Source of the DNA: Pigmentiphaga sp. NML030171
GTDB taxonomy: Bacteria; Pseudomonadota; Gammaproteobacteria; Burkholderiales; Burkholderiaceae_B
DNA length: 64,000 nucleotides
Reading direction: 5' to 3'
Assembly (NCBI RefSeq): GCF_002188635.1
Contig: NZ_NINX01000025.1
Span: forward strand, 62,001-126,000
This document shows positions 12,086-24,635 of the stretch, in pieces (position 1 is the first letter of the stretch; each line of letters begins with the position of its first letter). The notes under the pieces are model-generated. The model worked only from the letters and a program-made list of their open reading frames with translations. It searched no databases and was not told the origin of the DNA. A program made the position numbers and the translations under genes.

Positions 12086-13363
12086 ATGCTTCAAACGTAC
12101 GCGGAACGCTTGCTTGCCAATACCCTGAAAGACCTGGTCCGGCGCGGCACGCTGGATGTCACCCTGCCCGGCGGCCGCCGCCTGGCCTTCGGCGACGGCA
12201 CCTTGCCGCGCGCCGCCATCCGCTTCACCGACACCCGCGCCGTGCTGGCGCTGCTGATGGACCCCGACCTGCGCCTGGGCGAGCTGTTCATGGACCAGCG
12301 GCTGGTGGTCGACGAAGGCAGTATCTACGACGTGCTGGAACTGCTGCTGCGCGATGCCGACGCGGTGCGGCCCGGCGTCATGGTGCGCGTGCTGGACGCG
12401 ATGCGCATGTCGATACGGCGCTTCCTGCAGAACAACCGCCCGGGCCGCGCGCGCGCCAACGTCGCCCACCACTACGACCTGGACGACCGCCTGTACTCGC
12501 TGTTCCTGGACGAGCAGCGACAGTATTCCTGCGCCTATTTCGAGCACCCCGGGCAAGACCTGGAATCGGCCCAGCGGGCCAAGCAGCGCCACATCGCGGC
12601 CAAGCTGCTGGTCGAGCCCGGCCACCGCGTGCTCGACATCGGCTGCGGCTGGGGCGGCCTGACGCGCTACCTGGTCGAGGTCGCCGGCGCCGGGCACGCC
12701 ACCGGCATCACGCTGTCCGAGGAACAACTGAAGGGCGCGCGCGAACTGGCCGCCCGCACCGCCCATCCCCAGGCCTACGACTACCGCCTGGAGGACTACC
12801 GCGCGACGCCCGGCCGCTTCGACCGTATCGTGTCGGTGGGCATGTTCGAGCACGTGGGCGTGGGCTATCACGACGCCTTCTTCCGCAAATGCCACGAACT
12901 GCTGACGGACGACGGCGTGATGCTGTTGCATTTCATCGGCAACTCCGACGTCCCGGACTTCAACAATCCGTGGATAGAGAAGTACATCTTTCCCGGCGGC
13001 CACATCCCGTCGCTGTCGGAATTCACGCCCGCCATCGAACGCTCGGGCCTGGTCGTCACCGACATCGAGGTGCTGCGCCTGCACTACGCCAGCACGCTGC
13101 GCATCTGGCGCGAGCGCTTCCTGGCGCGCCGGGCCGAGGCCGTGGCGCTGTACGACGAACGCTTCGCCCGCATGTGGGAGTACTACCTGTCGATGTCGGA
13201 GACGGCGTTCCGCTACCAGGACATCGCCATCTTCCAGGTGCAACTGGCCAGGCGCCAGGAAAGCGTGCCGCTGACGCGGGACTACGTGGGCGAGCGGGAA
13301 GCCCGGCTGCGGGAAGCCGAGGCGCGCGCGGTCCTGCCGGGCCTCACGCCTTCAGGAACATGA
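12086..13363 (+). CDS. cfa: Cyclopropane-fatty-acyl-phospholipid synthase
   Basis: A 425-residue SAM-dependent methyltransferase that adds a methylene group across cis double bonds of membrane phospholipid acyl chains. The N-terminal lipid-binding domain (1-120) is followed by HHYDLDDRLYSLFLDE, the SAM motif VLDIGCGWGG (182-191), GITLSEEQ, SVGMFEHVG and a C-terminal FIFPGGHIPS-like stretch (YIFPGGHIPS). All are family hallmarks. ATG 12086 gives the usual length. It is preceded by a divergent Crp/Fnr-type regulator. Its last 20 bp overlap the TSUP gene on the other strand. Confidence 0.92.
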   Translation: MLQTYAERLLANTLKDLVRRGTLDVTLPGGRRLAFGDGTLPRAAIRFTDTRAVLALLMDPDLRLGELFMDQRLVVDEGSIYDVLELLLRDADAVRPGVMVRVLDAMRMSIRRFLQNNRPGRARANVAHHYDLDDRLYSLFLDEQRQYSCAYFEHPGQDLESAQRAKQRHIAAKLLVEPGHRVLDIGCGWGGLTRYLVEVAGAGHATGITLSEEQLKGARELAARTAHPQAYDYRLEDYRATPGRFDRIVSVGMFEHVGVGYHDAFFRKCHELLTDDGVMLLHFIGNSDVPDFNNPWIEKYIFPGGHIPSLSEFTPAIERSGLVVTDIEVLRLHYASTLRIWRERFLARRAEAVALYDERFARMWEYYLSMSETAFRYQDIAIFQVQLARRQESVPLTRDYVGEREARLREAEARAVLPGLTPSGT

Positions 13364-14081
13364 ACGCACTCATCGACACGCCCACCAGCACCACGATGGC
13401 CCGCATCACGACGGCGGGCACGCGGCGCGCCAACCGTGCGCCCGCGAATCCGCCCACCGTCGCGCCCACGGCCATCACGCCCGCCTCGCGCCATTGCACG
13501 AGCCCGCCGGCCACGTAGACCACGACGGCCACCACGGTCAGCACGCCGGACAGCAGGTTCTTGAGCCCATTGAGGGCGCTGAAATCGCCGCGCTTGGACA
13601 TCCCGAACAGGGCCAGCAGCATGATGCCCACGCCGCCGTTGAAGTAGCCGCCATACAGGCTGACGGCGAAGAGGCCCGCCGCCGCCGCACCGGAAGACAA
13701 CATCCGCCCGCGCGCCGCCCTCAGCATGATGGGCGCGCACAGGAACAGGGCGGTGGCGAACAGCAGCAGCCAGGGCGCCACGTTCCGGAAGACGGCGCCC
13801 GAGGTCCACAGCAACAGCAGTGCCCCCGCGCTCCCGCCCGCCAGCGCGATGCCCGACAGGCCCGCGAGCGAGCCGGATTCCGACCGCGCGATGTCGCGCC
13901 GCAGCGCCCAGGCGCCGGTCACATAGCCGGGCAGCAGCGCCAGCGTGCCGGTGGCGTTGGCAACCGCCGCGGGCATGCCCACGGAGACCAGGGCCGGGAG
14001 CGTGAGGAAGCTTCCCCCGCCCGCCGCGGCGTTGAGCATGCCCGCGCCGAAGGCGGCCGCCAACAGCAGCAGTTCCGACAT
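13344..14081 (-). CDS. TSUP (TauE/SafE) family anion permease
   Basis: A 245-residue integral membrane protein with about eight hydrophobic helices. The first carries the family signature GMLNAAAGGGSFLTLPAL, and the second half repeats it as LYGGYFNGGVGIMLLALFG, the internal duplication typical of TSUP proteins. Members export or import sulfite, sulfoacetate or other organic anions. It is the last gene of the minus-strand operon starting at 18348, 13 bp after the D-amino-acid dehydrogenase-like gene, so it may export a product of that pathway. Confidence 0.85.
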   Translation of the reverse strand: MSELLLLAAAFGAGMLNAAAGGGSFLTLPALVSVGMPAAVANATGTLALLPGYVTGAWALRRDIARSESGSLAGLSGIALAGGSAGALLLLWTSGAVFRNVAPWLLLFATALFLCAPIMLRAARGRMLSSGAAAAGLFAVSLYGGYFNGGVGIMLLALFGMSKRGDFSALNGLKNLLSGVLTVVAVVVYVAGGLVQWREAGVMAVGATVGGFAGARLARRVPAVVMRAIVVLVGVSMSAFMFLKA

Positions 14082-14094
14082 GTATCCCCCCGGA

Positions 14095-15342
14095 TCACCT
14101 GAGGCGCAGGCTGCGCAGCGGCGCGACGGCGCGCATGTCCACGCGCGGGTCGCGGCCGCTCGCCACGTCGGCGATGATGCGTCCGGTCAGCGCGGCCAGC
14201 GTCACGCCCAGATGGCCATGGCCGTAGGCCAGCAGGACGTGGGGCGCGGCCGGGGCCGTCCCCAGGATGGGACGGCTGTCGGGCACGGAAGGGCGCGGCC
14301 CCACCCATTTCGATACCGGTTCGGCATCCACCCCCTGGACGAAGCGTTCGAGTCCGTCGAACACCGGCGCCGCGCGCACGTGATCGGCCGGAGCATCGGC
14401 GTGCGTGAATTCCGCGACGCTCGCCATCCGGATGCCCGCCGCCATGGGCGTCAGCGCGACCTTGCGTTCCACCATCAGCACCGGCATGCGCAGCGGACTG
14501 CTGCCCGGCGCCAGCATGACGTGATAGCCGCGCTCGGCCACCAGCGGAATGTCCACGCCCAGCCCCCGCGCCAGCCGGTGGGACCAGGCGCCGGCGGCCA
14601 GCACCACGCGGTCGGCGCGCAGGCGCCCGTCCCGGGTCAGCACGCCACCGGCATCGATGCCGGTGGCCTGGGCGCGCACGATGCGCCCGCCCAGCGCCTC
14701 GACCCGGGCGGCCAGGCGCCGGGCCAGCATCAGTGTATCGGTGACGTATCCCATTCCCGGTATCGACATCGCGCCGCCGATGCGATCGGTCAGCGCGGGC
14801 TCCATGGCCCGCGCCTCGTCCACGTCGAGCGGCGTGCACGCGACCCCCAGGCTGCGCCGCAGCTCGTAGGCCCCCTGTGCCGCGCGCAGCGCCGCCTGCG
14901 ACCCGAACACGTGCAGGGCGCCGGACCGGCGCACCAGGTCGTTGCCGCCGATGTCGTCCAGCACGGGCTGCCAGGCCTCCCAGGCCTGCGCCAGCATCGC
15001 GGCCGTGGCATGGGTCCCGACGCGCGCGCGCTCGGCGGTGCCCTGGGCGATGAAGCGTGCGAACCACGGGAGATGCCGGGCGGCATAGCCGGGCCGCACA
15101 ATCAGCGGGCCCCGGGGATCGCGCAGCATCCGGACCGTCTGCCCCAGTATGCCGGGCGTGGCCTGCGGGAAGATGGAAGCGATGGCGATGTGGGCGGCGT
15201 TGCCGAAGCTCGCGCCCTCGCCCACGCCGCCGCGATCGATGACCGTCACGTCGTATCCGTCGCGCTGCAGGGCATGGGCGCAAGCCAGGCCCACCAGCCC
15301 CGCGCCCAGCACCACGATCGAACCGCGTGCCGATGCGCTCAT
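14095..15342 (-). CDS. FAD-dependent oxidoreductase, D-amino-acid dehydrogenase-like
   Basis: A 415-residue DAO-superfamily flavoprotein. The Rossmann motif GAGLVGLACA begins at residue 13, and FGNAAHIAIASIFPQATPG closely fits the DadA group. GHGHLGVTLAALTGRIIADV near the C-terminus closes the FAD site. DadA enzymes oxidise D-amino acids to 2-oxo acids with electrons passed to quinone. The ATG overlaps the M28 peptidase stop by 4 bp. The neighbouring peptidase and the D-glutamate cyclase-like gene at 19531 fit a D-amino-acid theme, but sarcosine, D-hydroxy or other amine substrates remain possible. Confidence 0.85.
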   Translation of the reverse strand: MSASARGSIVVLGAGLVGLACAHALQRDGYDVTVIDRGGVGEGASFGNAAHIAIASIFPQATPGILGQTVRMLRDPRGPLIVRPGYAARHLPWFARFIAQGTAERARVGTHATAAMLAQAWEAWQPVLDDIGGNDLVRRSGALHVFGSQAALRAAQGAYELRRSLGVACTPLDVDEARAMEPALTDRIGGAMSIPGMGYVTDTLMLARRLAARVEALGGRIVRAQATGIDAGGVLTRDGRLRADRVVLAAGAWSHRLARGLGVDIPLVAERGYHVMLAPGSSPLRMPVLMVERKVALTPMAAGIRMASVAEFTHADAPADHVRAAPVFDGLERFVQGVDAEPVSKWVGPRPSVPDSRPILGTAPAAPHVLLAYGHGHLGVTLAALTGRIIADVASGRDPRVDMRAVAPLRSLRLR

Positions 15343-16667
15343 GCGCCGCCTCCGGGCGCCGGTTCGTTGCGCAAGCCGCCCAGGCTGTCCGCGCGCAGCG
15401 CGCGCCACAGCACGCCCGCGGCCAGCACCGTGGCGCCGCGCAGATGGCCCTGGTCCACCAGCGCCCTCGTATCGGCGGGCGTCAGCAGCAGGCGCAGCGC
15501 GCTGTCGGGTTCGTCGAAGCCGGCGATCAGGCGCAGCGCGGGAATGCCCCAGGCGGCGAAGTTCGCGTGGTCGCTATTGGACATGAGCGGCAGATGGACG
15601 CCCAGGTCGCCTCCGGCCAGCGACGCCCCCGACCGGGCGAACCCGCCCAGCCGTTCGAAGCCCGACGTCAGCGCGGTCAGGCGCGGCGATCCCGCCAGCG
15701 AGTCGAGATTGACGTTGAGCGCCATCGCCGCGCGCCGCGCTTGCGGCAGCGCCGCCAGCCACTCGCGCGAGCCGTTCAGCGCCCATTCCTCGGCGCTGAA
15801 CAGGCACACGGTCAGGCCCCGGCGCATGACGTGCATCCGCGGCGCGAACGCCCGGGCCAGCGCCATGGCCGCCGCCACGCCGGTCGCATTGTCCAGGGCG
15901 CTCTCGGCCAGGGGATGGCCGTCGATGTGGGCGGACAGCACCACGCGCTCGTCCGGGTGAGCGGCCTGCCCGGCCGGCAGGTCGAGCACCAGCGTGTCGG
16001 TACGCGCCTGCGGCAGGTCTTCGCCGCCGATGCACAGGCGGACGCGCGCCCCGGGCTGCCGCAGCGCCAGCCCGGCCTCGGCCGAGATGCCCATGGCCGG
16101 GATGCCCGGCCCGCCCCCGCGTCCCGAGGATCCCGACACCGGGCCTATTCCGGCCTCGGGCTGCACCACCAGCAGCGCGGCGGCGCCCGCCTGCTGCGCC
16201 GCGGCCAGCTTGACCCGGCGATGGACCGTCCGGGTGGAAAAGGGGTATTCGTGCTGCACCATCACCGCGTGCCCGCGCACCGCGTCGCCCGCGGCGGTGA
16301 TCATGTCGGGCGTTCCGCGTCCCAGGTCCAGCACGGGCAGTTCGATGCCCTCTTCCGGCGTGAACGCCGTCCCCAGCAGCGGCACGGCCTCCAGTTGCCG
16401 GCCATCGGGCAGGCGCATCAGCACCGCATGGTCGCACCGCCACCCGGCGTAAGGCGTGGACTCGCGCGCGACCGTTCCGAAAACGCTCAATTGCTGTTCG
16501 CACCAATCCTGCGCGGCGCGTTCGCTGGCGGTACCCGCCATGCGTCCGCCATGCCGGCACAGGGCCCGGAAATCGGTCCACAACTCCTCGTCCCGCCGAA
16601 GGCGCGCGGCGACCTCGTCGAAGGCCGCCTGTTCGGCTGCCTGCGCGCCGATGTCGTCGCGCGTCAT
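15339..16667 (-). CDS. M28-family zinc metallopeptidase
   Basis: A 442-residue peptidase. A protease-associated (PA) insert seems to lie at about 130-225, with the repeated alanine- and glycine-rich segment. The M28 metal ligands are in order: SAHIDGH (His, Asp), LDNATGV (Asp), SAEEWAL (catalytic Glu-Glu), NLDSLAG (Asp) and SNSDHANF (His). No signal peptide is visible, so the enzyme should be cytosolic. M28 members are aminopeptidases or carboxypeptidases. Both ends overlap neighbouring operon genes by 4 bp. It may free an amino acid that the adjacent flavoenzyme oxidises. Confidence 0.85.
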   Translation of the reverse strand: MTRDDIGAQAAEQAAFDEVAARLRRDEELWTDFRALCRHGGRMAGTASERAAQDWCEQQLSVFGTVARESTPYAGWRCDHAVLMRLPDGRQLEAVPLLGTAFTPEEGIELPVLDLGRGTPDMITAAGDAVRGHAVMVQHEYPFSTRTVHRRVKLAAAQQAGAAALLVVQPEAGIGPVSGSSGRGGGPGIPAMGISAEAGLALRQPGARVRLCIGGEDLPQARTDTLVLDLPAGQAAHPDERVVLSAHIDGHPLAESALDNATGVAAAMALARAFAPRMHVMRRGLTVCLFSAEEWALNGSREWLAALPQARRAAMALNVNLDSLAGSPRLTALTSGFERLGGFARSGASLAGGDLGVHLPLMSNSDHANFAAWGIPALRLIAGFDEPDSALRLLLTPADTRALVDQGHLRGATVLAAGVLWRALRADSLGGLRNEPAPGGGA

Positions 16668-17335
16668 GCCAGGTGCTCGCCAAGGAAGTCCAGCGTACGC
16701 TGCTGTGCCAGGGCCGCCGATTCCGCGTGGTAGAGGTCGCGCTGATCGCAGTTGAAGCCATGCCCCGTGGCATAGAAATGCACGGCCACCTCGGGCGCGG
16801 CCCGGCCCGGCTCCATCATTTTTTCCTTGGACACCAGGTGATCGCGCTCGCCCCAATGCAGCATCATGGGGATGCGCGGCGTCGGCTCGATCACCGTTGG
16901 AATGGCGTTGCCGTAGTACGAGACCGCGCACGCGAATCCCGTGCCGCGCCCCGCCGTCACCCATGCCGCGGTGCCGCCCCAGCAGAAGCCGACGATGCCC
17001 ACCTTGCCCGCCTGGGCCGCGAACGCGCCGGCGGCCTCGATGTCCTTGACCGCATCGTTCCAGTCGATCAGCTTCATCAGGGCCTGCCCCTTGCGGACGT
17101 CGTCGTCGCCGTAGCCCAGGTCCAGCCCGGGCTCCACCCGGTCGAAGACACTGGGCGCGATCGCGAGATAACCCCATCCGGCATAGCGGTCGGCCACGCT
17201 GCGTATGTGGCTGTTCACGCCGAAGATCTCGGGCAGGATGACGACGCCGGCGCGGGGCGTGCCCGCCGGCCGGGCCACGTAGCCGTCGAATTCGAAACCG
17301 TCCGCCGCGGTCAGGCGCATCCGTTCACCACTCAT
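16664..17335 (-). CDS. Dienelactone hydrolase family protein
   Basis: A 223-residue alpha/beta hydrolase of the DLH family. The triad is complete: Cys118 in GFCWGG, Asp165 in GERDHL and His192 in ATGHGF. Glu36 in PEIFG is the residue that activates the cysteine in dienelactone hydrolase. True dienelactone hydrolases open muconate-type lactones in chlorocatechol pathways; no such genes are here, so a different lactone or ester substrate is likely. It overlaps the M28 gene by 4 bp and follows the bug gene after 44 bp. Confidence 0.88.
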   Translation of the reverse strand: MSGERMRLTAADGFEFDGYVARPAGTPRAGVVILPEIFGVNSHIRSVADRYAGWGYLAIAPSVFDRVEPGLDLGYGDDDVRKGQALMKLIDWNDAVKDIEAAGAFAAQAGKVGIVGFCWGGTAAWVTAGRGTGFACAVSYYGNAIPTVIEPTPRIPMMLHWGERDHLVSKEKMMEPGRAAPEVAVHFYATGHGFNCDQRDLYHAESAALAQQRTLDFLGEHLA

Positions 17336-17379
17336 CTTGTATCCTCCTTGTTCTCACGAACACCTGTTGGTGCCGTCCA

Positions 17380-18348
17380 TCAATCCACTTTGATACCGGC
17401 CCGCGTGGCCACGTCGCGCCAAGCGGCGAATTCCTTGCTCATCAGGCCGGCGAAGGCCGCCGCGTCGCGCGTCGACGGCGAGATGCCCAGCGCCGCGAAG
17501 CGTTCCACGATGGCGGGATCGCGCATGGCCGCCGTCACCGCCTTCGCGATGCGGGCCGAGATGTCGGCGGGCAGCCCCGCCGGCGCGATCAGGCCCCACC
17601 AGTTCAGGACGTGCACGCCCTGCACCCCGAGGCGGTCGAAGGTGGGAATCTCGGGAAAATCCTTCAACGGCTCGGGCGAGGCGACGGCCAGCGGCCGCAG
17701 GCGGCCGCTCTTGACCAGCGGCATGCCGGAAGCGGTGCTGGTGAAGATGGCATCGACCTGCCCGGCGATCGTCTCGTTCATGGCGGGTCCCGATCCACGA
17801 TACGGCACGCTCACCAGCGTGGTCTTGGTGCGCAGCTGCAGCAGTTCGGCCGCCAGGTGGCCCAGCGAGCCGGGGCCGGCATTGGCGATGTTCACGGGGC
17901 GATCGTGCGCCTGCTTGAGGAACGACGGCAGGTCGGCCGCGCCCGAGGCCGGCACGAACAGCACCAGCGGCGCGGAGCCCACCTGGGCGATGGTGGAGAA
18001 ATCCTTGGCCACGTCGTAGCCGGGCGACGTCTGGCGCACCGCGGCGTTGAGCACCAGCGCCACGTCGGCCAGCATGATCGTGTAGCCGTCCGGGGCGGAT
18101 CGCGCCAGCTGCGTGGCGGCGATTGCCGTGTTGGCGCCGGCGCGGTTGATGACGACGACCGATACGCCCAGCTGCTTCTGGAGTTGCGGGGCCAGCGCCC
18201 GGACGACGATGTCCGAGGCGCCGCCGGGCGCGTAGGGCACGACGAACTCGATGGGCCTGGAGGGATAGGAATCGGCCAGGGCGGGGGCGGCAGCCACGGC
18301 GCCAGCCGCGCCCGCGGTGCAAAGACGGAGAATGGAAAGGACGCGCAT
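17380..18348 (-). CDS. Bug/TctC periplasmic solute-binding protein 2
   Basis: A 322-residue exported protein with a signal peptide ending about residue 25 (APALADSYP). It shows IEFVVPYAPGGASD, VVINRAGANT, GYTIMLAD, VPYRGSGPAM and IAPAGLPADI. ATG 18348 is chosen because it begins the signal peptide; an upstream in-frame ATG would add 20 hydrophilic residues. It is the first gene of the operon with DLH hydrolase, M28 peptidase, D-amino-acid-dehydrogenase-like protein and TSUP permease, and follows a LysR gene by 78 bp in the same direction. Its ligand is probably the operon substrate. Confidence 0.88.
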   Translation of the reverse strand: MRVLSILRLCTAGAAGAVAAAPALADSYPSRPIEFVVPYAPGGASDIVVRALAPQLQKQLGVSVVVINRAGANTAIAATQLARSAPDGYTIMLADVALVLNAAVRQTSPGYDVAKDFSTIAQVGSAPLVLFVPASGAADLPSFLKQAHDRPVNIANAGPGSLGHLAAELLQLRTKTTLVSVPYRGSGPAMNETIAGQVDAIFTSTASGMPLVKSGRLRPLAVASPEPLKDFPEIPTFDRLGVQGVHVLNWWGLIAPAGLPADISARIAKAVTAAMRDPAIVERFAALGISPSTRDAAAFAGLMSKEFAAWRDVATRAGIKVD

Positions 18349-18426
18349 GTCACGGACGCCTGGAAGAATGAGAGGCGCCACATTAAGTTCCGCTCCAGGG
18401 AGGGTCAAACGAAAACTTCGGGACCC

Positions 18427-19368
18427 TCATTCCGCCATGGAATACCCCAAATCCAGATGCTTCTGTATGCGCATCTGCGTCGCTTCGGCTTCGGGCAGCA
18501 TCCAGTCCAGGAACCGGTCCCGGGCGGCGCCATGCCCGGCGCCGGTGGGCAGCACGGCGTGATAGGCGTATCGCGTCCGCACGCATTCGCCCAGGGGCCG
18601 CACCAGGCGGCCGCTTTCGAGCTGGTCCAGTACCAGGAACAGCGGGCATATCGCCACGCCCAGCCCGGCCACCACCGCCGGGATCAGCACCGAGAACCCT
18701 TCGAACAGCAGGCCGGTGCCGGCGCGAGGCGTCCAGGCGGGCGCCGCCGCCGCGCTCCATTCCCTCCAGTCATAGCCCCGCTGCGCGCGGTGCAGCGCGG
18801 GCAGTGCCTGGACCTGCCGCAGCGTGGCGCGCGTGTCCCCCAGCAGATCGGGGCTGGCCACCAGCGCCATTTCGCGCCCCAGCAGGCGGATCGCCCGGGC
18901 ATCGGGCCATCGTCCGGCGCCGACCCGGACCTCGACGTCGAAGCGCTCGGTCACCGGCGAGAAATCCGGCAGGCGCGGGCGGACCGCCAGGCGCGTGCCG
19001 GGCGCACGCTCGCGGAATCCCGGCAGGCGGGGAATGAGCCAGTACGACGCGAAGGCCGGGGACGCGGATATCTCCACCGCGGTGGCGGGCGCCTTTTCCC
19101 CGGCTACCTCCTGCGCGATCGCCCTGCCCTCCTGCAGCATGGCCAGCGCATCGCCGGCGTGCGCAAGATAGGCGTGGCCGGCGGGCGTCAGCGCCAGCAG
19201 CTTTCCCGAACGCACGAACAGCCGGCAGCCCAGTTGCTCTTCCAGCGCCTGAACCTGCTTGCTGACGGCGCTCTGGGTCAGGCACAGCGTATCGGCCGCG
19301 CGGGTGAAGCTGTTGCAGCGGGCGACTTCGATGAACGCGCGCAGGACCGGTATGGAAGGAATGTTCAT
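18427..19368 (-). CDS. LysR-family regulator 1
   Basis: A 313-residue LTTR. The winged helix-turn-helix is at about 5-63 (FIEVARCNSFTRAADTLCLTQSAVSKQVQALEE region), with wording close to GcvA-type regulators. The effector domain follows. It faces the DUF4392 gene across 162 bp and lies just upstream of the bug gene at 18348 in the same direction, so it could control both operons. The promoter region contains several inverted repeats with ATCGA/TCGAT and GCATAA/TTATGC halves. Confidence 0.88.
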   Translation of the reverse strand: MNIPSIPVLRAFIEVARCNSFTRAADTLCLTQSAVSKQVQALEEQLGCRLFVRSGKLLALTPAGHAYLAHAGDALAMLQEGRAIAQEVAGEKAPATAVEISASPAFASYWLIPRLPGFRERAPGTRLAVRPRLPDFSPVTERFDVEVRVGAGRWPDARAIRLLGREMALVASPDLLGDTRATLRQVQALPALHRAQRGYDWREWSAAAAPAWTPRAGTGLLFEGFSVLIPAVVAGLGVAICPLFLVLDQLESGRLVRPLGECVRTRYAYHAVLPTGAGHGAARDRFLDWMLPEAEATQMRIQKHLDLGYSMAE

Positions 19369-19425
19369 GGTGTAGGACGCGAGCCGGAAAGCCGCCCCGG
19401 GGCCGTCGAACGCAGCCGCGGCGCC

Positions 19426-19468
19426 GCATAACATTTGCTTATCGATCGCGCCGAGAATTCGATTATGC
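19426..19468. promoter_or_regulatory. Nested inverted repeats between LysR 1 and DUF4392 gene
   Basis: GCATAA (19426-19431) pairs with TTATGC (19463-19468). Inside, ATCGA (19441-19445) pairs with TCGAT (19459-19463). This is AT-richer than its surroundings and lies where a LysR operator and promoter would be expected. Binding is inferred. Confidence 0.35.
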
Positions 19469-19491
19469 CCCCGGACGCGAGACGACTCAGA

Positions 19492-19517
19492 ATGGCTCCA
19501 GTCTAATCCAGAGCCAT
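19492..19517. repeat. Inverted repeat ATGGCTC-N12-GAGCCAT
   Basis: A perfect 7-bp inverted repeat (19492-19498 and 19511-19517) ending 13 bp before the DUF4392 ATG. It could be an operator or fold in the mRNA leader near the GGGAG ribosome-binding site. Confidence 0.35.
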
Positions 19518-19530
19518 CCGGGAGCCTCCG

Positions 19531-20568
19531 ATGCCCGACATCATCGGCGAGTACGTCGACCGCCTCGTCACGGTCGAGATGCGCAACCGCGCAATGAACC
19601 ACAACATCATCGGCCCGATCTACGACCGGGCGCGCGCCGAAGGCGGCGGACGGCCGATCAGCGCGCGCGCCGCGCAGGCGCTGTTCGACCGCGTGCGGCC
19701 CGGCGACCGCGTCCTGATCGTGACCGGCGCCGGCTACGCGCCCGAGGCGCCCAACGGCGAAAGCGACGGCCCGCCCGGCGCGGCGGCCCTCGCCCATGCA
19801 CTGTTCTGGGGCTTGCAGGCGGTGCCGGTGTTCGTGACCGAACCCTGCCACGCCCCCCCGGTCGTGGCCAGCAGCCAGGCCGCGGGCATCATGGTGCGCG
19901 ACTACGCGCTGTGCCGCGACCGCAGGATGGGCGCGGCGCTGTCCACCTCGCCCGAGCGGCAGGACGAAGTACCGGGCTGGGCCGCGGCGCTGCTGGACGA
20001 CTGCCAGCCCCGGGCCATCGTGTCGATCGAACGCCTGGGGCCCAACGAGCACGGGCTGATCCACTATTCCACGGGCGTGCGGCCGCAGGAGTGCGTCGAC
20101 CTCTCGCCGCTCTTCACGCAGGCCGCGCGGCGCGGGATCCTGTCCATCGGCATCGGCGACAACGGCAACGAGATCGGCTTTGGCCGGATCTTCGACTTCA
20201 TGAAGTCCTTCCACCCCTACGGCCGGCGTTGCCAGTACGAAGGGGGGGTGGGCGTGCCCACCACCGTCGCCACCGACATCTTCCTGCCGGCCTCGATCTC
20301 CAACTGGGGCGCCTACGGCCTCTGCGCCATGCTGGCCTTCCTGTGCCGCCGGCTCGACGTCCTGCATACGCCGGCCATCGAACGCGACGTCCTGCGCGCC
20401 TGCCTGGACGCGGGTGGCTGGGAGATGCGCTATTGCACCTCGCGCTTCATCGTCGACGGCACCGAGGGCGAGAGCTCGATGGCGATCATCCAGCTTCTGC
20501 GCGACATGGTGCGCGTCAACATCGCGCCGCCCGACCGCGGGCTGTCCCACGGCACGCTCGACCGCTAG
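19531..20568 (+). CDS. DUF4392 / D-glutamate cyclase-like protein
   Basis: A 345-residue soluble protein matching the glutamate cyclase-like (DUF4392) family. Recognisable pieces are VLIVTGAGYAP, PNGESDGPPGAAALA, SIERLGPNEHGLIHYSTG and the strongly conserved IGDNGNEIGFGRI. In mammals the homologous domain converts D-glutamate to 5-oxo-D-proline. A GGGAG site precedes ATG 19531. It begins a three-gene operon with a Bug protein and a maleate isomerase-like enzyme. Cyclase activity is inferred from family; the bacterial members are little studied. Confidence 0.82.
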   Translation: MPDIIGEYVDRLVTVEMRNRAMNHNIIGPIYDRARAEGGGRPISARAAQALFDRVRPGDRVLIVTGAGYAPEAPNGESDGPPGAAALAHALFWGLQAVPVFVTEPCHAPPVVASSQAAGIMVRDYALCRDRRMGAALSTSPERQDEVPGWAAALLDDCQPRAIVSIERLGPNEHGLIHYSTGVRPQECVDLSPLFTQAARRGILSIGIGDNGNEIGFGRIFDFMKSFHPYGRRCQYEGGVGVPTTVATDIFLPASISNWGAYGLCAMLAFLCRRLDVLHTPAIERDVLRACLDAGGWEMRYCTSRFIVDGTEGESSMAIIQLLRDMVRVNIAPPDRGLSHGTLDR

Positions 20569-20592
20569 ATTTCCCTACTTCGGAGAACCGAC

Positions 20593-21570
20593 ATGTCCGC
20601 TTCGTTCAGGCGCATCGCCGCCTGCCTTTCCCTCGCGCTGGGCGCGCTCGGCCCCGCCCACGCCCAGTCGCCCGCGGCCTCCTCCGGCCGGCCGCTGCGC
20701 ATCGTCGTTCCCTACGCCTCGGGCGGCCTGGCCGACATCACGGCGCGGCTGTTGTCCGAGCACCTGGCCGCGCGGCTGCACCAGCCCGTGGTGGTGGAAA
20801 ACAAGCCGGGCGCCAACGGCGCCATCGGCACCGCCCAGGTCGCCAAGGCCGCGCCCGACGGCAACACGCTGGTGTACGTCGTCAGCTCGCACGTCTTCGG
20901 CCGCGCCCTCATCCCCGACCTGCCGTTCGATCCCATCAAGGATTTCGCGCCCGTCACGCTGGCGACGCGCACCGCGATGGTGCTGGTGGCCTCGCCCTCG
21001 CTGCCGGTGAACAACGTGCCGGAACTGGTGGCCTACGTGCGCGCCCGGCCGAACCAGCTCGCCTTCGCCTCGGCCGGCAACGGCAGCAACGTCCACGTCT
21101 TCGGCCAGTGGTTCGCCGACCTGGCCGGGCTCAAGATGACCCACGTTCCCTACAAGGGCAGCGCGGCGGCGCACATGGACCTCATCGCGGGCCGCACGCA
21201 GATCGTGTTCGATACGCTGGGCGCGGTGCAGCCGCACGTGGCCGCGGGCAACCTCAAGATCCTGGCCGCCGGCGCCGAACGGCTCCCGAAGTATCCGGAC
21301 ATCCCCACGGTGGCCGAGGCCGGCTATCCCGGATTCCGCGCGGAGTCCTGGGGCGCCGTGCTGGCGCCCGCCGGCACCCCTGCCGCCCGCATCGACCAGC
21401 TCAATCGCGAGATCGTCGCGGCACTGAACCTGCCGGAGGTCCGCAAGCGCCTCGAGGACGCCGGCGCGCAGGTGGTCGGCAGCACGCCCGCCGAACTGGG
21501 CCAGACCCTGGTGGCCGAGGAGAAGAAATACGGAGATCTGATCCGCCGCATGGGGATACGGCTCGAATGA
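20593..21570 (+). CDS. Bug/TctC periplasmic solute-binding protein 3
   Basis: A 325-residue exported protein. The signal peptide ends near residue 24 (GPAHAQS). Markers are LRIVVPYASGGLADITAR, VVVENKPGANGAIGT, THVPYKGSAAAHM and LAPAGTPAARIDQLN. It sits 24 bp after the DUF4392 gene and 25 bp before the isomerase-like gene. The GANGAIGT loop is typical of Bug proteins that bind the ligand carboxylate through water molecules. The operon context suggests an acidic amino acid or dicarboxylate ligand. Confidence 0.88.
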   Translation: MSASFRRIAACLSLALGALGPAHAQSPAASSGRPLRIVVPYASGGLADITARLLSEHLAARLHQPVVVENKPGANGAIGTAQVAKAAPDGNTLVYVVSSHVFGRALIPDLPFDPIKDFAPVTLATRTAMVLVASPSLPVNNVPELVAYVRARPNQLAFASAGNGSNVHVFGQWFADLAGLKMTHVPYKGSAAAHMDLIAGRTQIVFDTLGAVQPHVAAGNLKILAAGAERLPKYPDIPTVAEAGYPGFRAESWGAVLAPAGTPAARIDQLNREIVAALNLPEVRKRLEDAGAQVVGSTPAELGQTLVAEEKKYGDLIRRMGIRLE

Positions 21571-21595
21571 CCCGGAAACCAGAAGGAGCATGTCC

Positions 21596-22372
21596 ATGAA
21601 GGCCGTTTCCCTGTACGCGCCCTATGGCTGGAAGGCGAAGATCGGCCTGATCGTCCCATCCACCAACACCATCAACGAACCCGAGTTCTGGCGCATGGCG
21701 CCCGAGGGCGTGGGAGTGTTCACGGCCCGGGCCATGCTGCTGGGCAGCATGACCCAGGAATCCTACGTCGCCATGGCCGAAGCGACCCGGACGGCTGCGG
21801 ACCAGCTGGCCACGGCCGAGGTCGACATCGTCGCCTACGGCTGCACCTCCGGGTCGTTCATGTGCCCCATGTCCGAGATCGTGGCGGACATACGCCAGCG
21901 GGCAGGCGCGCCGGCGCTGGCCGCCTCGGGGGCCGTGGTCGCCGCGCTGCGGGCGCTGGGCGTGCGCAACGTGGCCGTGGCCACGCCCTACGTGGAATTC
22001 GTCAACCGGCGCGAGCGGGAATTCCTGGAGGAGTACGGCTTCCGCGTGGCCTCGCTGCACGGCCTGGAACTGGGAGAGACGCAGGAGGAACGCCGCGGCA
22101 TCGGCCGGGTCCCTCCCGAGGCCCTCTACCGGCTGGCCCGCCTGGCCGACCGCCCCGAGGCGGACGCCGTGTTCATTTCCTGCACCAACCTGGCTTCGCT
22201 GGGCGTGGTGGCGGCCCTGGAACGCGACCTGGGCAAGCCCGTCATCACCAGCAACCAGGCCTGCTTCTGGGCATGCCTGCGGCGCCTGGGGCTGAACGAT
22301 GCGATCGGGGGCCATGGAAGGCTGCTCGAATCGTGCCTCGCGCCTATCGACGATTCGGCCTTCGAAGTATGA
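21596..22372 (+). CDS. Maleate isomerase/Asp-Glu racemase superfamily enzyme
   Basis: A 258-residue protein of the superfamily that includes maleate cis-trans isomerase, arylmalonate decarboxylase and Asp/Glu racemases. Both catalytic cysteines are present: Cys83 in YGCTSGSF and Cys196 in SCTNLA. Asn24 lies in PSTNTINEPEF. Two cysteines fit isomerase or racemase chemistry and argue against arylmalonate decarboxylase, which keeps only the second. ATG 21596 has GGAG 8 bp upstream; ATG 21590 is too close to it. Substrate could be maleate or a D/L acidic compound. Confidence 0.85.
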   Translation: MKAVSLYAPYGWKAKIGLIVPSTNTINEPEFWRMAPEGVGVFTARAMLLGSMTQESYVAMAEATRTAADQLATAEVDIVAYGCTSGSFMCPMSEIVADIRQRAGAPALAASGAVVAALRALGVRNVAVATPYVEFVNRREREFLEEYGFRVASLHGLELGETQEERRGIGRVPPEALYRLARLADRPEADAVFISCTNLASLGVVAALERDLGKPVITSNQACFWACLRRLGLNDAIGGHGRLLESCLAPIDDSAFEV

Positions 22373-22408: not shown

Positions 22409-23368
22409 TTGGCACGCCCGCTGAACTTCCGCCAGCTCGAAGCATTCCGCGCCGTCATTCTGACCGGCAGCATGACGGCCGCCGGCCACGCGATGTCCAT
22501 TTCGCAGCCCGCGGTCTCGCGGCTGATCCACGATCTCGAGCACGAGCTCAGGCTGGTGCTGTTCCAGCGCCAGGGCATACAGATCATTGCGACCGAAGCG
22601 GCGGTCCGGCTGTACAGCGAGGTGGAACGGCACTTCTCGGGCGCCGACCGGATCCGCGAGGCCGCGCGCGCGATCCGGCTGTCGACGGCCGGCTATCTGC
22701 ACGTGGGGACGATGCCGAACCTCGCCTCGCATTGCCTGCCCGAGGCCATCGGCCTGCTGCTGCGGCACCACCCCGACGTCGTCGTTTCCGTCCATCCCGA
22801 CAGCTCGATCAACCTCGTTTCCATGCTGCTCCACGCGCAGCTGGACATCGTGTTCGGCACGCTGCCGCCCGATCCGAGCGGACTGGAACACGACCCCTTT
22901 CCCTCGACCCAGGCGGTCTGCGTCATGCCTGCCGCCCATCCTCTCGCGCGCAAGAAACGGGTCACGGTCAACGATCTCGACGGCCAGGACTTCGTCGCGC
23001 TGGGCCAGGCGAGCCGCCAGCGCATCCAGCTCAACAATGCGATGCTGGCGGCCGGGGTACGGCCCAACATCCGCGTCGAGACCATGCACTCGTCCTCGGT
23101 GATCGGCTATGTGAGCCGCGGGATAGGGATCGCGGTCATCGATCCCATCGCCGTCATCGGCCACCACACGCCCAAGGTCGCCATCCGCCCCTTCACCCCT
23201 ACGATATCGCTGGACTTCTCGGCCGTTTACCGCCGCAACGTGCCCCGGCCGGATGCCGCCGCCGCGCTTACCCGGGCGCTCGGGCAGGTGGTGCAGGAGA
23301 AGCTGGGGCAACTGGGCGCCGGGATCCCTGCGCGCCGCCCGCCGCGTGACGGGCAAGGATTAAAATGA
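22409..23368 (+). CDS. LysR-family regulator 2
   Basis: A 319-residue LTTR with the DNA-binding domain at about 5-64 (LNFRQLEAFRAVILTGSMTAAGHAMSISQPAVSRLI region) and the effector domain from about 90. No ATG fits: the frame is closed by the isomerase stop at 22370-22372, so the start is TTG 22409. It is 36 bp downstream of the isomerase-like gene in the same direction, so it may be the fourth gene of that operon and its local regulator. Confidence 0.85.
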   Translation: MARPLNFRQLEAFRAVILTGSMTAAGHAMSISQPAVSRLIHDLEHELRLVLFQRQGIQIIATEAAVRLYSEVERHFSGADRIREAARAIRLSTAGYLHVGTMPNLASHCLPEAIGLLLRHHPDVVVSVHPDSSINLVSMLLHAQLDIVFGTLPPDPSGLEHDPFPSTQAVCVMPAAHPLARKKRVTVNDLDGQDFVALGQASRQRIQLNNAMLAAGVRPNIRVETMHSSSVIGYVSRGIGIAVIDPIAVIGHHTPKVAIRPFTPTISLDFSAVYRRNVPRPDAAAALTRALGQVVQEKLGQLGAGIPARRPPRDGQGLK

Positions 23369-23402: not shown

Positions 23403-24635
23403 ATGTCCGAAGGCTTCACCACCCGCATCCTGCATAGCGACCGCCGCGGCTCGGTCGAGCATGGCGCCCTGCACAAACCCATGCACACCGCCTCCGCCTT
23501 CGGCTATGGCGACGCGCAAACCCTGGTCGACGTGTTCCAGGGCCGCAATCCGGGATACTCGTACGGCCGCCAGGGCAACCCCACCACCGCCGCGCTCGAG
23601 GCCAAGATCACCGAGATGGAGGACGGCATCGGCACCGTCTCCTTCTCGACCGGCATGGCCGCCATCGCCGCGGTGCTGACCACTCTGCTGCGCGAAGGCG
23701 ACCACGTGGTCTCCAGCGGCTTCCTGTTCGGCAATACCAACAGCCTGTTCGCGACGATGAAGGGGCTGGGCGTGGAAATCGACTTCGTCGATGCCACCGA
23801 CGCCGCCAACGTCGAGCGGGCGCTGCGCCCCAACACCCGCCTGGTGTTCGTCGAGACCATCGCCAATCCCCGCACGCAGGTGGCCGCGCTGGCCGAGATC
23901 GGCGTGCTGTGCAAGGCCCGCGGCGTGCTGTACGTGGTCGACAACACCATGACCTCGCCCTACCTGTTCCGTCCCAAGGCGGTCCAGGCCGACCTGAGCA
24001 TCAACTCGCTCACCAAGTACATCTGCGGCCACGGCAACGCGCTGGGCGGCGCGGTCACGGACACCGGGCTGTTCGACTGGACCGCCTATCCCAACATCAG
24101 CCCGTCGTACCGCAACACCAAGCCGGCCATGCAGGGCCTGCAGCAGATCAAGAAGAAGGGCCTGCGCGACATGGGCGCCACCCTGGGTTCGGAGGCCGCC
24201 CACCGCATCGCGGCCGGCGCCGAGACCCTCAGCCTGCGCATGGAGCGCGCCTGCTCGACCGCCGCCGCGCTGGCCGCGCAACTGGCCGCCCATCCCAAGG
24301 TCAAGCGCGTCTATCACCCCAGCCTGCCCGACCACCCGCAGCACGAGCGCGCGCGCGCCCTGTTCAAGCGCGGCGGCGCCTTGCTGGCCTTCGAGCTGCT
24401 GGACGGAATCGATCCGGTGCATTTCCAGAACCAGTTGCGCGTGGTCATCTCGGCCACCCACCTGGGCGACAACCGCACGCTGGCCATCCCGGTGGCACAG
24501 ACCATCTATTGGGAAATGGGCCCCGAGCGGCGGCGGGAGATGGACATCGCCGATTCGCTGATACGCGTTTCGGTCGGCATCGAGGATCCCGAGGACCTGC
24601 TGGGCGACTTCGCCCAGGCCTGCGACGCCGTCTAG
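23403..24635 (+). CDS. Cystathionine gamma-synthase family PLP enzyme (sulfhydrylase-like)
   Basis: A 410-residue fold-type I PLP enzyme of the Cys/Met metabolism family. PLP-binding Lys205 is in NSLTKYICGH. YSYGRQGNPT holds the tyrosine and arginine that bind the phosphate of the partner subunit, and VDNTMTSPYLF has the ring-stacking aspartate. Family members make cystathionine or homocysteine from activated homoserine, or split them. The IKKKGLRDMG insertion and the 410-residue length resemble O-succinylhomoserine sulfhydrylases. It is a single gene; its last 4 bp overlap the convergent hybrid kinase. Confidence 0.85.
   Translation: MSEGFTTRILHSDRRGSVEHGALHKPMHTASAFGYGDAQTLVDVFQGRNPGYSYGRQGNPTTAALEAKITEMEDGIGTVSFSTGMAAIAAVLTTLLREGDHVVSSGFLFGNTNSLFATMKGLGVEIDFVDATDAANVERALRPNTRLVFVETIANPRTQVAALAEIGVLCKARGVLYVVDNTMTSPYLFRPKAVQADLSINSLTKYICGHGNALGGAVTDTGLFDWTAYPNISPSYRNTKPAMQGLQQIKKKGLRDMGATLGSEAAHRIAAGAETLSLRMERACSTAAALAAQLAAHPKVKRVYHPSLPDHPQHERARALFKRGGALLAFELLDGIDPVHFQNQLRVVISATHLGDNRTLAIPVAQTIYWEMGPERRREMDIADSLIRVSVGIEDPEDLLGDFAQACDAV

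What the first reader, a model, noticed from the sequence alone, without database searches (positions are those of the whole stretch)
13344..22372. Two facing Bug-linked operons with a shared D-amino-acid / acidic-compound theme
On the left: Bug, DLH-fold hydrolase, M28 peptidase, DadA-like flavoenzyme and TSUP permease, with 4-bp overlaps in the middle. On the right: DUF4392 (D-glutamate cyclase-like), Bug and a two-cysteine maleate isomerase/Asp-Glu racemase-like enzyme. A LysR gene lies between. Together these could take up, hydrolyse, racemise or cyclise and oxidise D-amino-acid-type compounds such as D-glutamate, oxoproline or peptides of cell-wall origin. I do not know a described system with this set; it is my strongest candidate for an undescribed pathway.
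Basis: inference. Interest (0 to 1): 0.75.

Follow-up and report, generated by a model that had tools for sequence, protein, structure and literature searches.

The report
Two linked acid-uptake gene modules
In the bacterium Pigmentiphaga, two neighbouring gene groups that each seem to import and break down an unidentified small acid are inherited side by side but appear to have separate switches, and one of them is a widespread, apparently undescribed import-plus-enzyme module.

Summary
Comparison resolves two modules. Right: DUF4392-BugR-AMDase-like-LysR2. Its core (LysR2 + DUF4392 + TTT or TRAP receptor) recurs in 25 of 25 named loci of Alpha-, Beta- and Gammaproteobacteria, with broadly congruent trees and a conserved 36-37-bp element ahead of most of these operons (window 19428-19464). 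Left: LysR1-BugL-DLH-M28-DadA-like-TSUP. Its core (LysR1-BugL-M28) recurs alone in the family, with a palindrome ATTCC-N5-GGAAT at the LysR1/BugL junction in 20 of 20 loci. The two modules sit together in 9 of 9 Pigmentiphaga genomes that have either, and in one genome of another genus, which has everything except DUF4392. So the joint unit is real, but each half has its own regulator and candidate operator, and DUF4392 is separable. The D-glutamate reading is weak: the cyclase partner domain and PxpA are absent from this genome, and the loop beside the metal site differs from the 5-oxoprolinase-linked DUF4392s. The AMDase-like enzyme has two catalytic-type cysteines: racemase/isomerase-like, not a decarboxylase. 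Substrates remain unknown.

The parts
13344..14081 (-). TSUP permease (TauE/SafE)
   Evidence: PF01925, 3.6e-31; 56% in L156; not at this place in the two P. litoralis-type genomes
14095..15342 (-). DadA-like FAD oxidoreductase (DAO fold)
   Evidence: PF01266 2.8e-57; NCBIfam D-amino acid dehydrogenase 205.7 bits, below the cut-off of 383; only solved matches at E <= 1e-12: glycine oxidases
15339..16667 (-). M28 metallo-amidohydrolase with PA domain, no signal peptide seen by eye
   Evidence: PF04389 + PF02225; metal/base positions conserved in 25 of 25 homologues except one E>K; predicted model (pLDDT 91) matches zinc aminopeptidases, best 5.1e-30
16664..17335 (-). DLH-fold hydrolase with C118-D165-H192 triad
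   Evidence: PF01738 7.8e-39; best solved match dienelactone hydrolase 1.8e-31; triad in 10 of 10 homologues
17380..18348 (-). BugL, TctC-type solute receptor
   Evidence: PF03401 1.4e-48; best solved match 2dvz; pocket segments
18427..19368 (-). LysR1, regulator gene of the left operon
   Evidence: PF00126 + PF03466 (scanned as 18427-19332); start; accompanies BugL-M28 in other loci
18429..18443 (.). putative LysR1 operator, palindrome ATTCC-N5-GGAAT, overlapping the 3' end of LysR1
   Evidence: at the LysR1/BugL junction in 20 of 20 loci, 19 perfect; 1 perfect site in 71 other loci, 1.18 Mb
19428..19464 (+). putative LysR2 operator, 37 bp bipartite ATAAYATT ... AATTCGATT
   Evidence: one match in the 5.86-Mb genome; none in shuffles of the window
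19531..20568 (+). DUF4392 / GLUCM-like_C enzyme with a di-metal-type site
   Evidence: PF14336 1.8e-52; TON_0340 by sequence 2e-15 and by fold 8.7e-14 (model mean pLDDT 77); six metal ligands E77 D79 E167 D210 E214 D309
20593..21570 (+). BugR, TctC-type solute receptor
   Evidence: PF03401 2.9e-64; 51-96% to the Bug receptors of the other cassettes, pocket segments conserved
21590..22372 (+). AMDase/EutA/maleate-isomerase-like enzyme with cysteines C85 and C198
   Evidence: PF17645 1.4e-41; alignments; both Cys in 19 of 19 homologues
22409..23368 (+). LysR2, regulator gene of the right operon
   Evidence: Pfam; a LysR2 homologue is close to DUF4392 in 25 of 25 named loci; tree

Best explanation
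The locus is a composite of two import-and-conversion modules that are inherited together. Right module (LysR2, candidate operator 19428-19464): the receptor BugR captures a small acid in the periplasm; in the cytoplasm DUF4392, a di-metal-type enzyme, and the two-cysteine AMDase/EutA-like racemase or cis-trans isomerase act on it. Left module (LysR1, candidate operator 18429-18443): BugL captures a second, related compound; three enzymes whose genes overlap or adjoin act on it: a cysteine-type DLH hydrolase (ester or lactone), a di-zinc-type M28 amidohydrolase (amide), and a DadA-like flavoenzyme that oxidises the amino or imino acid released; TSUP moves an organic anion. Shown by computation: genes, families, active-site residues, conserved order, separate conserved elements, ancestry of the parts. 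Inferred: that each Bug ligand feeds the enzymes of its own operon, that LysR1 and LysR2 bind these elements, and that the two halves serve one pathway for an N-substituted or chiral acid. Substrates are not known. The membrane partners of both receptors must lie elsewhere or be TSUP.
For: Order kept in 9 of 9 Pigmentiphaga genomes with either half, two of them (L006, L063) with other genes on both flanks; the other 2 of 11 genus genomes, G001 and G010, show no clade-A DUF4392, no M28 and no AMD match at the thresholds used (G001 has a distant DUF4392). L156, another genus, has LysR2-AMD-BugR beside LysR1-BugL-DLH-M28-DadA-TSUP at 55-68% identity. Core LysR2 + DUF4392 + receptor in 25 of 25 named loci, trees broadly congruent. 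Core LysR1-BugL-M28 in 10 of 11 further M28 loci fetched, the 11th cut by a contig end. LysR1 box 20 of 20. LysR2 element with both halves in 25 of 29 loci, once in the genome. Catalytic residues conserved.
Against: The two elements differ, and the LysR1 box is not in the divergent gap, so co-regulation is not indicated. In 19 of 25 named DUF4392 loci there is no AMD and no M28 within the DNA held. The joint unit outside Pigmentiphaga rests on one genome. DadA, DLH and AMD score below the cut-offs of specific NCBIfam models and M28 matches none, so their reactions are inferred from folds and residues. No TctA homologue was seen among the nine genes either side of DUF4392 in the Pigmentiphaga loci. 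The LysR2 element was not found in L019, L020 and L024. The elements are conserved sequences, not shown binding sites.
Confidence: 0.5

Rival explanations
1. Two independent catabolic modules that merely sit side by side in one lineage and in one relative that shares them by descent or transfer; their substrates are unrelated.
For: Each core occurs without the other in many loci; each has its own regulator and candidate operator; among the genomes searched the joint unit was seen in 10, of two genera.
Against: Both halves stay together in the P. litoralis type although the flanks differ, and in L156 with even identities; genus genomes have all or none of the three marker genes.
Confidence: 0.35
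2. A D-glutamate / 5-oxo-D-proline / cell-wall D-amino-acid pathway: DUF4392 cyclises D-glutamate, the AMDase-like enzyme racemises, the DadA-like enzyme oxidises.
For: The mouse DUF1445-DUF4392 protein is a D-glutamate cyclase (PMC5339696, passages); DUF4392 has PxpA and PxpB homologues close by in 7 of 20 loci outside the proteobacterial set (L027-L046); two cysteines fit a racemase.
Against: No match to DUF1445 or PxpA in the window genome, so 5-oxo-D-proline would have no PxpABC route onward (OPLAH-type oxoprolinases were not searched for); the loop after E167 differs from that of the Pxp-linked proteins; no Pxp or DUF1445 homologue among the called genes of the 25 clade-A loci or the window's first 40 kb; L156 does without DUF4392.
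Confidence: 0.15

Closest known systems
TON_0340 (Thermococcus; PDB 4dwz, 4fc5, 5gkx, 5gl2-4), a DUF4392 protein described as a probable Mn-dependent phosphatase (PMC5132392, passages read)
   Same: Sequence match 2e-15; the only solved fold with E <= 0.001 (15 of 15 chains); all six metal-binding acidic residues aligned
   Different: 25% identity; the loop after the third ligand differs; no receptor gene is mentioned for it in the passages read. Its measured phosphatase activity was very low.
Mammalian D-glutamate cyclase (DUF1445 + DUF4392; PMC5339696, passages read)
   Same: Shares the DUF4392 domain family
   Different: No DUF1445 domain here, nor any match in the genome
pxpTABC 5-oxo-L-proline system of Corynebacterium glutamicum (PMC13274462, passages read)
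   Same: Plan of transporter + enzyme + divergent regulator
   Different: APC transporter, GntR regulator and PxpABC there; Bug/TRAP receptor, LysR and DUF4392 here
AMDase gene neighbourhoods with orphan tctC/bug genes (PMC4996985, passages read)
   Same: AMDase-superfamily gene beside an orphan Bug gene in Betaproteobacteria
   Different: AMDases have G74 in place of the second cysteine; the window enzyme has Cys there, and CTN in place of CGG at the other
Maleate cis-trans isomerase (PDB 2xec, 4fq7) and EutA (TIGR02990)
   Same: Related by sequence, with cysteines aligned at both places in 4fq7 (on a 70% paralogue); EutA model 2.6e-46
   Different: 158 bits against the EutA cut-off of 318; reaction not known
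M28 zinc aminopeptidases with PA domain (PDB 6hc6, 2ek8, 3iib)
   Same: Fold and metal ligands
   Different: About 20-22% identity; gene linked to a solute receptor, no signal peptide seen

Membership tests
DUF4392 / GLUCM-like_C (PF14336) | Profile match over the curated cut-off | tested here: met
   179 bits against 27.9
DUF4392 / GLUCM-like_C (PF14336) | Six invariant metal-binding Asp/Glu of TON_0340 | tested here: met
   E77 D79 E167 D210 E214 D309; 27 of 27 clade-A rows (L025 left out), 33-34 of 34 distant rows, the missing one a gap
DUF4392 / GLUCM-like_C (PF14336) | Fold of TON_0340 | tested here: met
   E 8.7e-14, TM 0.65 (query) / 0.82 (target), rmsd 4.2; model mean pLDDT 77, low around residues 299-311
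D-glutamate cyclase | DUF1445 domain fused or encoded in the genome | tested here: not met
   PF07286: no match in G000; 1 of 11 genus genomes
D-glutamate cyclase | Conversion of D-glutamate to 5-oxo-D-proline | not testable with these tools
   needs purified enzyme
PxpABC 5-oxoprolinase route | PxpA (LamB/YcsF) in the genome | tested here: not met
   PF03746: no match in G000; 2 of 11 genus genomes, one of them partial and weak
Arylmalonate decarboxylase | Gly at position 74 and Gly after the second Cys (criteria in PMC4996985) | tested here: not met
   C85 and C198-T-N at these places
Two-cysteine members of the Asp/Glu racemase superfamily | Cysteine on both sides of the active site | tested here: met
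   C85 and C198, 19 of 19 homologues
DadA D-amino acid dehydrogenase | NCBIfam cut-off | tested here: not met
   205.7 bits against 383
M28 metallopeptidase | Metal ligands and base Glu of the family (ligand set recalled) | tested here: met
   H248, D260, E294, E295, D323, H368 (numbering with one extra leading residue); 25 homologues, one E294K
Bug/TctC receptors | PF03401 match | tested here: met
   both receptors
Bug/TctC receptors | Identity of the ligand | not testable with these tools
   needs a binding screen

The most novel reading that the evidence does not exclude
The clade-A DUF4392 cassette is an undescribed import-and-conversion system found across proteobacterial classes: one LysR (LysR2), one conserved 36-37-bp operator, an interchangeable receptor (Bug with or without TctBA, or TRAP DctPQM) and a single di-metal enzyme that converts the imported carboxylate straight into central metabolism, with a substrate other than D-glutamate. 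In Pigmentiphaga it was extended by a racemase/isomerase and coupled to an amide-hydrolysing module.
Probability: 0.5. Interest if true: 0.65.

Novelty: new variant of a known kind. Interest (0 to 1): 0.5.

Why it matters
[quoted passage not shown] A stand-alone DUF4392 that is, in several genomes, the only enzyme gene beside a solute receptor gives a direct way in: find the receptor's ligand and test it as the substrate. The conserved elements make the inducers testable too, and the split into two candidate regulons tells experimenters not to expect one inducer.

Tried and rejected
DUF4392 as a search word gave 2 papers.

Considered and rejected: AMDase (decarboxylase) for 21590-22372, because of the second cysteine; one shared LysR1 regulon for both operons, because the only perfect LysR1 box in the window is at the LysR1/BugL junction; membership of the Cys/Met PLP gene (23403-24635) in the right operon, because no homologue follows LysR2 in the two P. 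litoralis-type loci or in L156; a wider LysR1 regulon: of 4 further copies of the palindrome in the genome two lie beside other LysR genes (one of these loci, L220, also holds two Bug-family genes) and two inside genes, and none of the four loci has an M28 homologue.

Selections and dropped rows: of the 268 family genomes, 43 had an M28 match; outside the Pigmentiphaga loci and L156 I fetched 11 of the 37 other listed places, and three of these 11 are second copies in G005, G009 and G194. Of the 12 listed AMD places outside the main loci with 58-70% identity I fetched 8; lower ones (88 genomes had a match) were not looked at. The DUF4392 tree (59 rows) left out L025, L027, L030 and L210 (split, overlong or partial); no DUF4392 was called in L036 and L197, L197 although the genome search had a hit there. 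A first control count for the LysR1 box (11 sites) held six duplicate Pigmentiphaga loci and four loci fetched because of the box; the corrected count is. The LysR2-element matrix was trained on 7 of the sites it then describes; 3 of 29 loci (L019, L020, L024) show no good site and L011 only the right half; in L021 the site lies inside the called TctB frame, whose start is probably further on. Family scans used starts a few codons off: one extra leading residue for M28, a TTG start for BugL, 12 residues short for LysR1.
Full report
What is there. The window lies in a Pigmentiphaga genome (nearest named relative P. kullae, 96% for DUF4392). The left genes run on the minus strand in the order LysR1, BugL, DLH, M28, DadA-like, TSUP; the right genes on the plus strand in the order DUF4392, BugR, AMDase/EutA-like, LysR2. 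DLH/M28 and M28/DadA overlap by 4 bp (start codons). The operons diverge from a 162-bp gap.

Right module. In 25 of 25 named loci found with DUF4392 at 68-96% identity (L002-L026: 9 Burkholderiales, 15 Alphaproteobacteria, 1 Halomonas, whose gene is split) a solute receptor follows, Bug in 20 and TRAP DctP in 5, often with TctBA or DctQM, and a LysR2 homologue is close by. AMD and M28 are in the same stretch only in the six named loci that belong to the window's genus, and in L057, L063 and the window. Trees of DUF4392, BugR and LysR2 share their main groups (quick trees, SH-aLRT support only), so LysR2 and not LysR1 is the cassette's regulator, even where, as here, LysR1 is the divergent neighbour. 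In the Bug receptors, the segments that should line the pocket keep GSN, SH, PYxGS and SW in 24 of 24 rows including the window (placed by comparison with the terephthalate receptors), which suggests one ligand or close relatives.

A bipartite element, ATAAYATT ... AATTCGATT, 36-37 bp, starts 92-119 bp before DUF4392 in most cassettes, or lies near the start of TctB where that gene comes first (L026; L021). Counting strict pattern, matrix and eye, both halves are present in 25 of 29 loci; L011 has one half, and L019, L020 and L024 show none. A strict pattern hit 12 places in the 29 loci and none in 66 other loci of 1.05 Mb. The element occurs once in the window's genome and not in shuffles of the window.

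Left module. The trio LysR1-BugL-M28 occurs without the rest in 10 of 11 further loci fetched from the family (L165-L171, L173-L175; L172 is cut by a contig end; L174 has a DLH gene and L170 a TSUP gene after M28). M28 at E up to 1e-70 was found in 10 of 399 genomes sampled across the order, 7 of them outside the family; of those 7 loci one (L184) has a Bug directly next to M28 on the same strand (L185 and L190 are short contigs). At the LysR1/BugL junction a palindrome ATTCC-N5-GGAAT, of the T-N11-A type known for LysR boxes (recalled), is present in 20 of 20 loci, 19 perfect and one with a mismatch. In the window it overlaps the end of LysR1 (18429-18443). Seventy-one other loci (1.18 Mb) hold one perfect site. 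BugL pocket segments are alike within the Pigmentiphaga/L156 group and differ from those of the trio loci, so the ligand may have changed when DLH and DadA joined.

The joint unit. Of 11 genomes of the genus, 9 have clade-A DUF4392 and the M28 and AMD orthologues, and 2 (G001, G010) have none of the three at the thresholds used. In P. litoralis-type genomes (L006, L063) the unit is kept at 64-81% identity although TSUP and the Cys/Met gene are not at their places and the flanking genes differ. L156, from another genus of the family, carries LysR2 56%, AMD 68%, BugR 68%, LysR1 55%, BugL 57%, DLH 64%, M28 58%, DadA 60% and TSUP 56% in the same layout, but no DUF4392 there, and none was found elsewhere in that genome (the second search rang in no control genome). 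Its BugR and LysR2 fall inside the DUF4392-linked clades and the LysR2 element is still ahead of BugR. The simplest reading is loss of DUF4392 in that lineage. So the receptor's ligand may be handled without DUF4392 when AMD is present, and without AMD elsewhere.

What the enzymes may do. DUF4392 aligns with TON_0340 by sequence (2e-15) and by predicted fold, where TON_0340 chains are the only matches with E up to 0.001 (15 of 15; model mean pLDDT 77), and keeps its six metal ligands. The name D-glutamate cyclase comes from the two-domain mouse protein; TON_0340 showed a very low Mn-dependent phosphatase activity. In 7 of the 20 loci L027-L046 PxpA and PxpB homologues are close to DUF4392, with PxpC in 5 and DUF1445 in 5 of them, and in L046 DUF4392 is fused to PxpB. 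Other distant Alcaligenaceae members sit beside PLP-dependent and RidA genes, or beside metallo-beta-lactamase-fold and hydroxyacid dehydrogenase genes (Pfam run on L198, L204 and L056 only). After the third ligand the 7 Pxp-linked proteins read MRG, while the 27 clade-A rows and the window read STG; TON_0340 reads neither, so the meaning of the loop is an inference. With no match to DUF1445 or PxpA in the window's genome, a D-glutamate cyclase role here is unlikely though not excluded.

The AMDase-like enzyme has cysteines at both catalytic places, whereas AMDases have glycine at one (PMC4996985). Paralogues of 58-70% identity sit in other Bug operons: with creatininase, HpcH aldolase, a carbamoylase-type M20 hydrolase and a D-2-hydroxyacid dehydrogenase (L157-L162), or with a dihydropyrimidinase-type hydrolase (L163, L164) (families scanned in L157 and L163). 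Outside the family L194 repeats part of the first set, and L195 has Bug genes nearby but not these partners. This subfamily therefore often accompanies amide-bond hydrolases, which fits a racemase or isomerase step next to amide hydrolysis. M28 keeps its metal ligands and its predicted fold (pLDDT 91) matches zinc aminopeptidases; DLH keeps its triad. M28, DLH and DadA show no signal peptide by eye, so their substrates are probably imported small molecules rather than periplasmic peptides.

Verdict. What appears new is the wide LysR2-DUF4392-receptor cassette with its conserved element, and the two-module, two-element anatomy. No paper on it was found in the searches made, which cover open-licence papers only.

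Noticed in passing
L157 5212-11864 (own genome, contig 20): A second AMD paralogue (70%) lies in a LysR-Bug-Bug-creatininase-HpcH aldolase-AMD-M20 carbamoylase-D-2-hydroxyacid dehydrogenase operon that recurs in L158-L162.
   Followed up: partly
L025 7817-10549: In Halomonas sp. JB37 the DUF4392 gene is split by an insertion holding two ORFs that look, by eye, like a transposase.
   Followed up: no
L017 9989-12130: Natronohydrobacter has two tandem DUF4392 genes ahead of one Bug gene.
   Followed up: no
L046 9752-11374: A Spirochaetaceae genome encodes DUF4392 fused to PxpB (CT_C_D) in one 540-aa frame, beside DUF1445, PxpA and PxpC homologues.
   Followed up: partly
L202, L204-L207, L209, L056: A separate Alcaligenaceae clade of DUF4392; in L204 and L056, checked by Pfam, it sits next to a PLP-dependent (PALP) gene, with a RidA-family gene close by in L204. 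The other loci were placed by gene size and order only.
   Followed up: partly
L014 3249-3285: A LysR2-like element stands ahead of a second transporter-type operon next to a LysR2 paralogue in Stappia, so the element may have a wider family.
   Followed up: no
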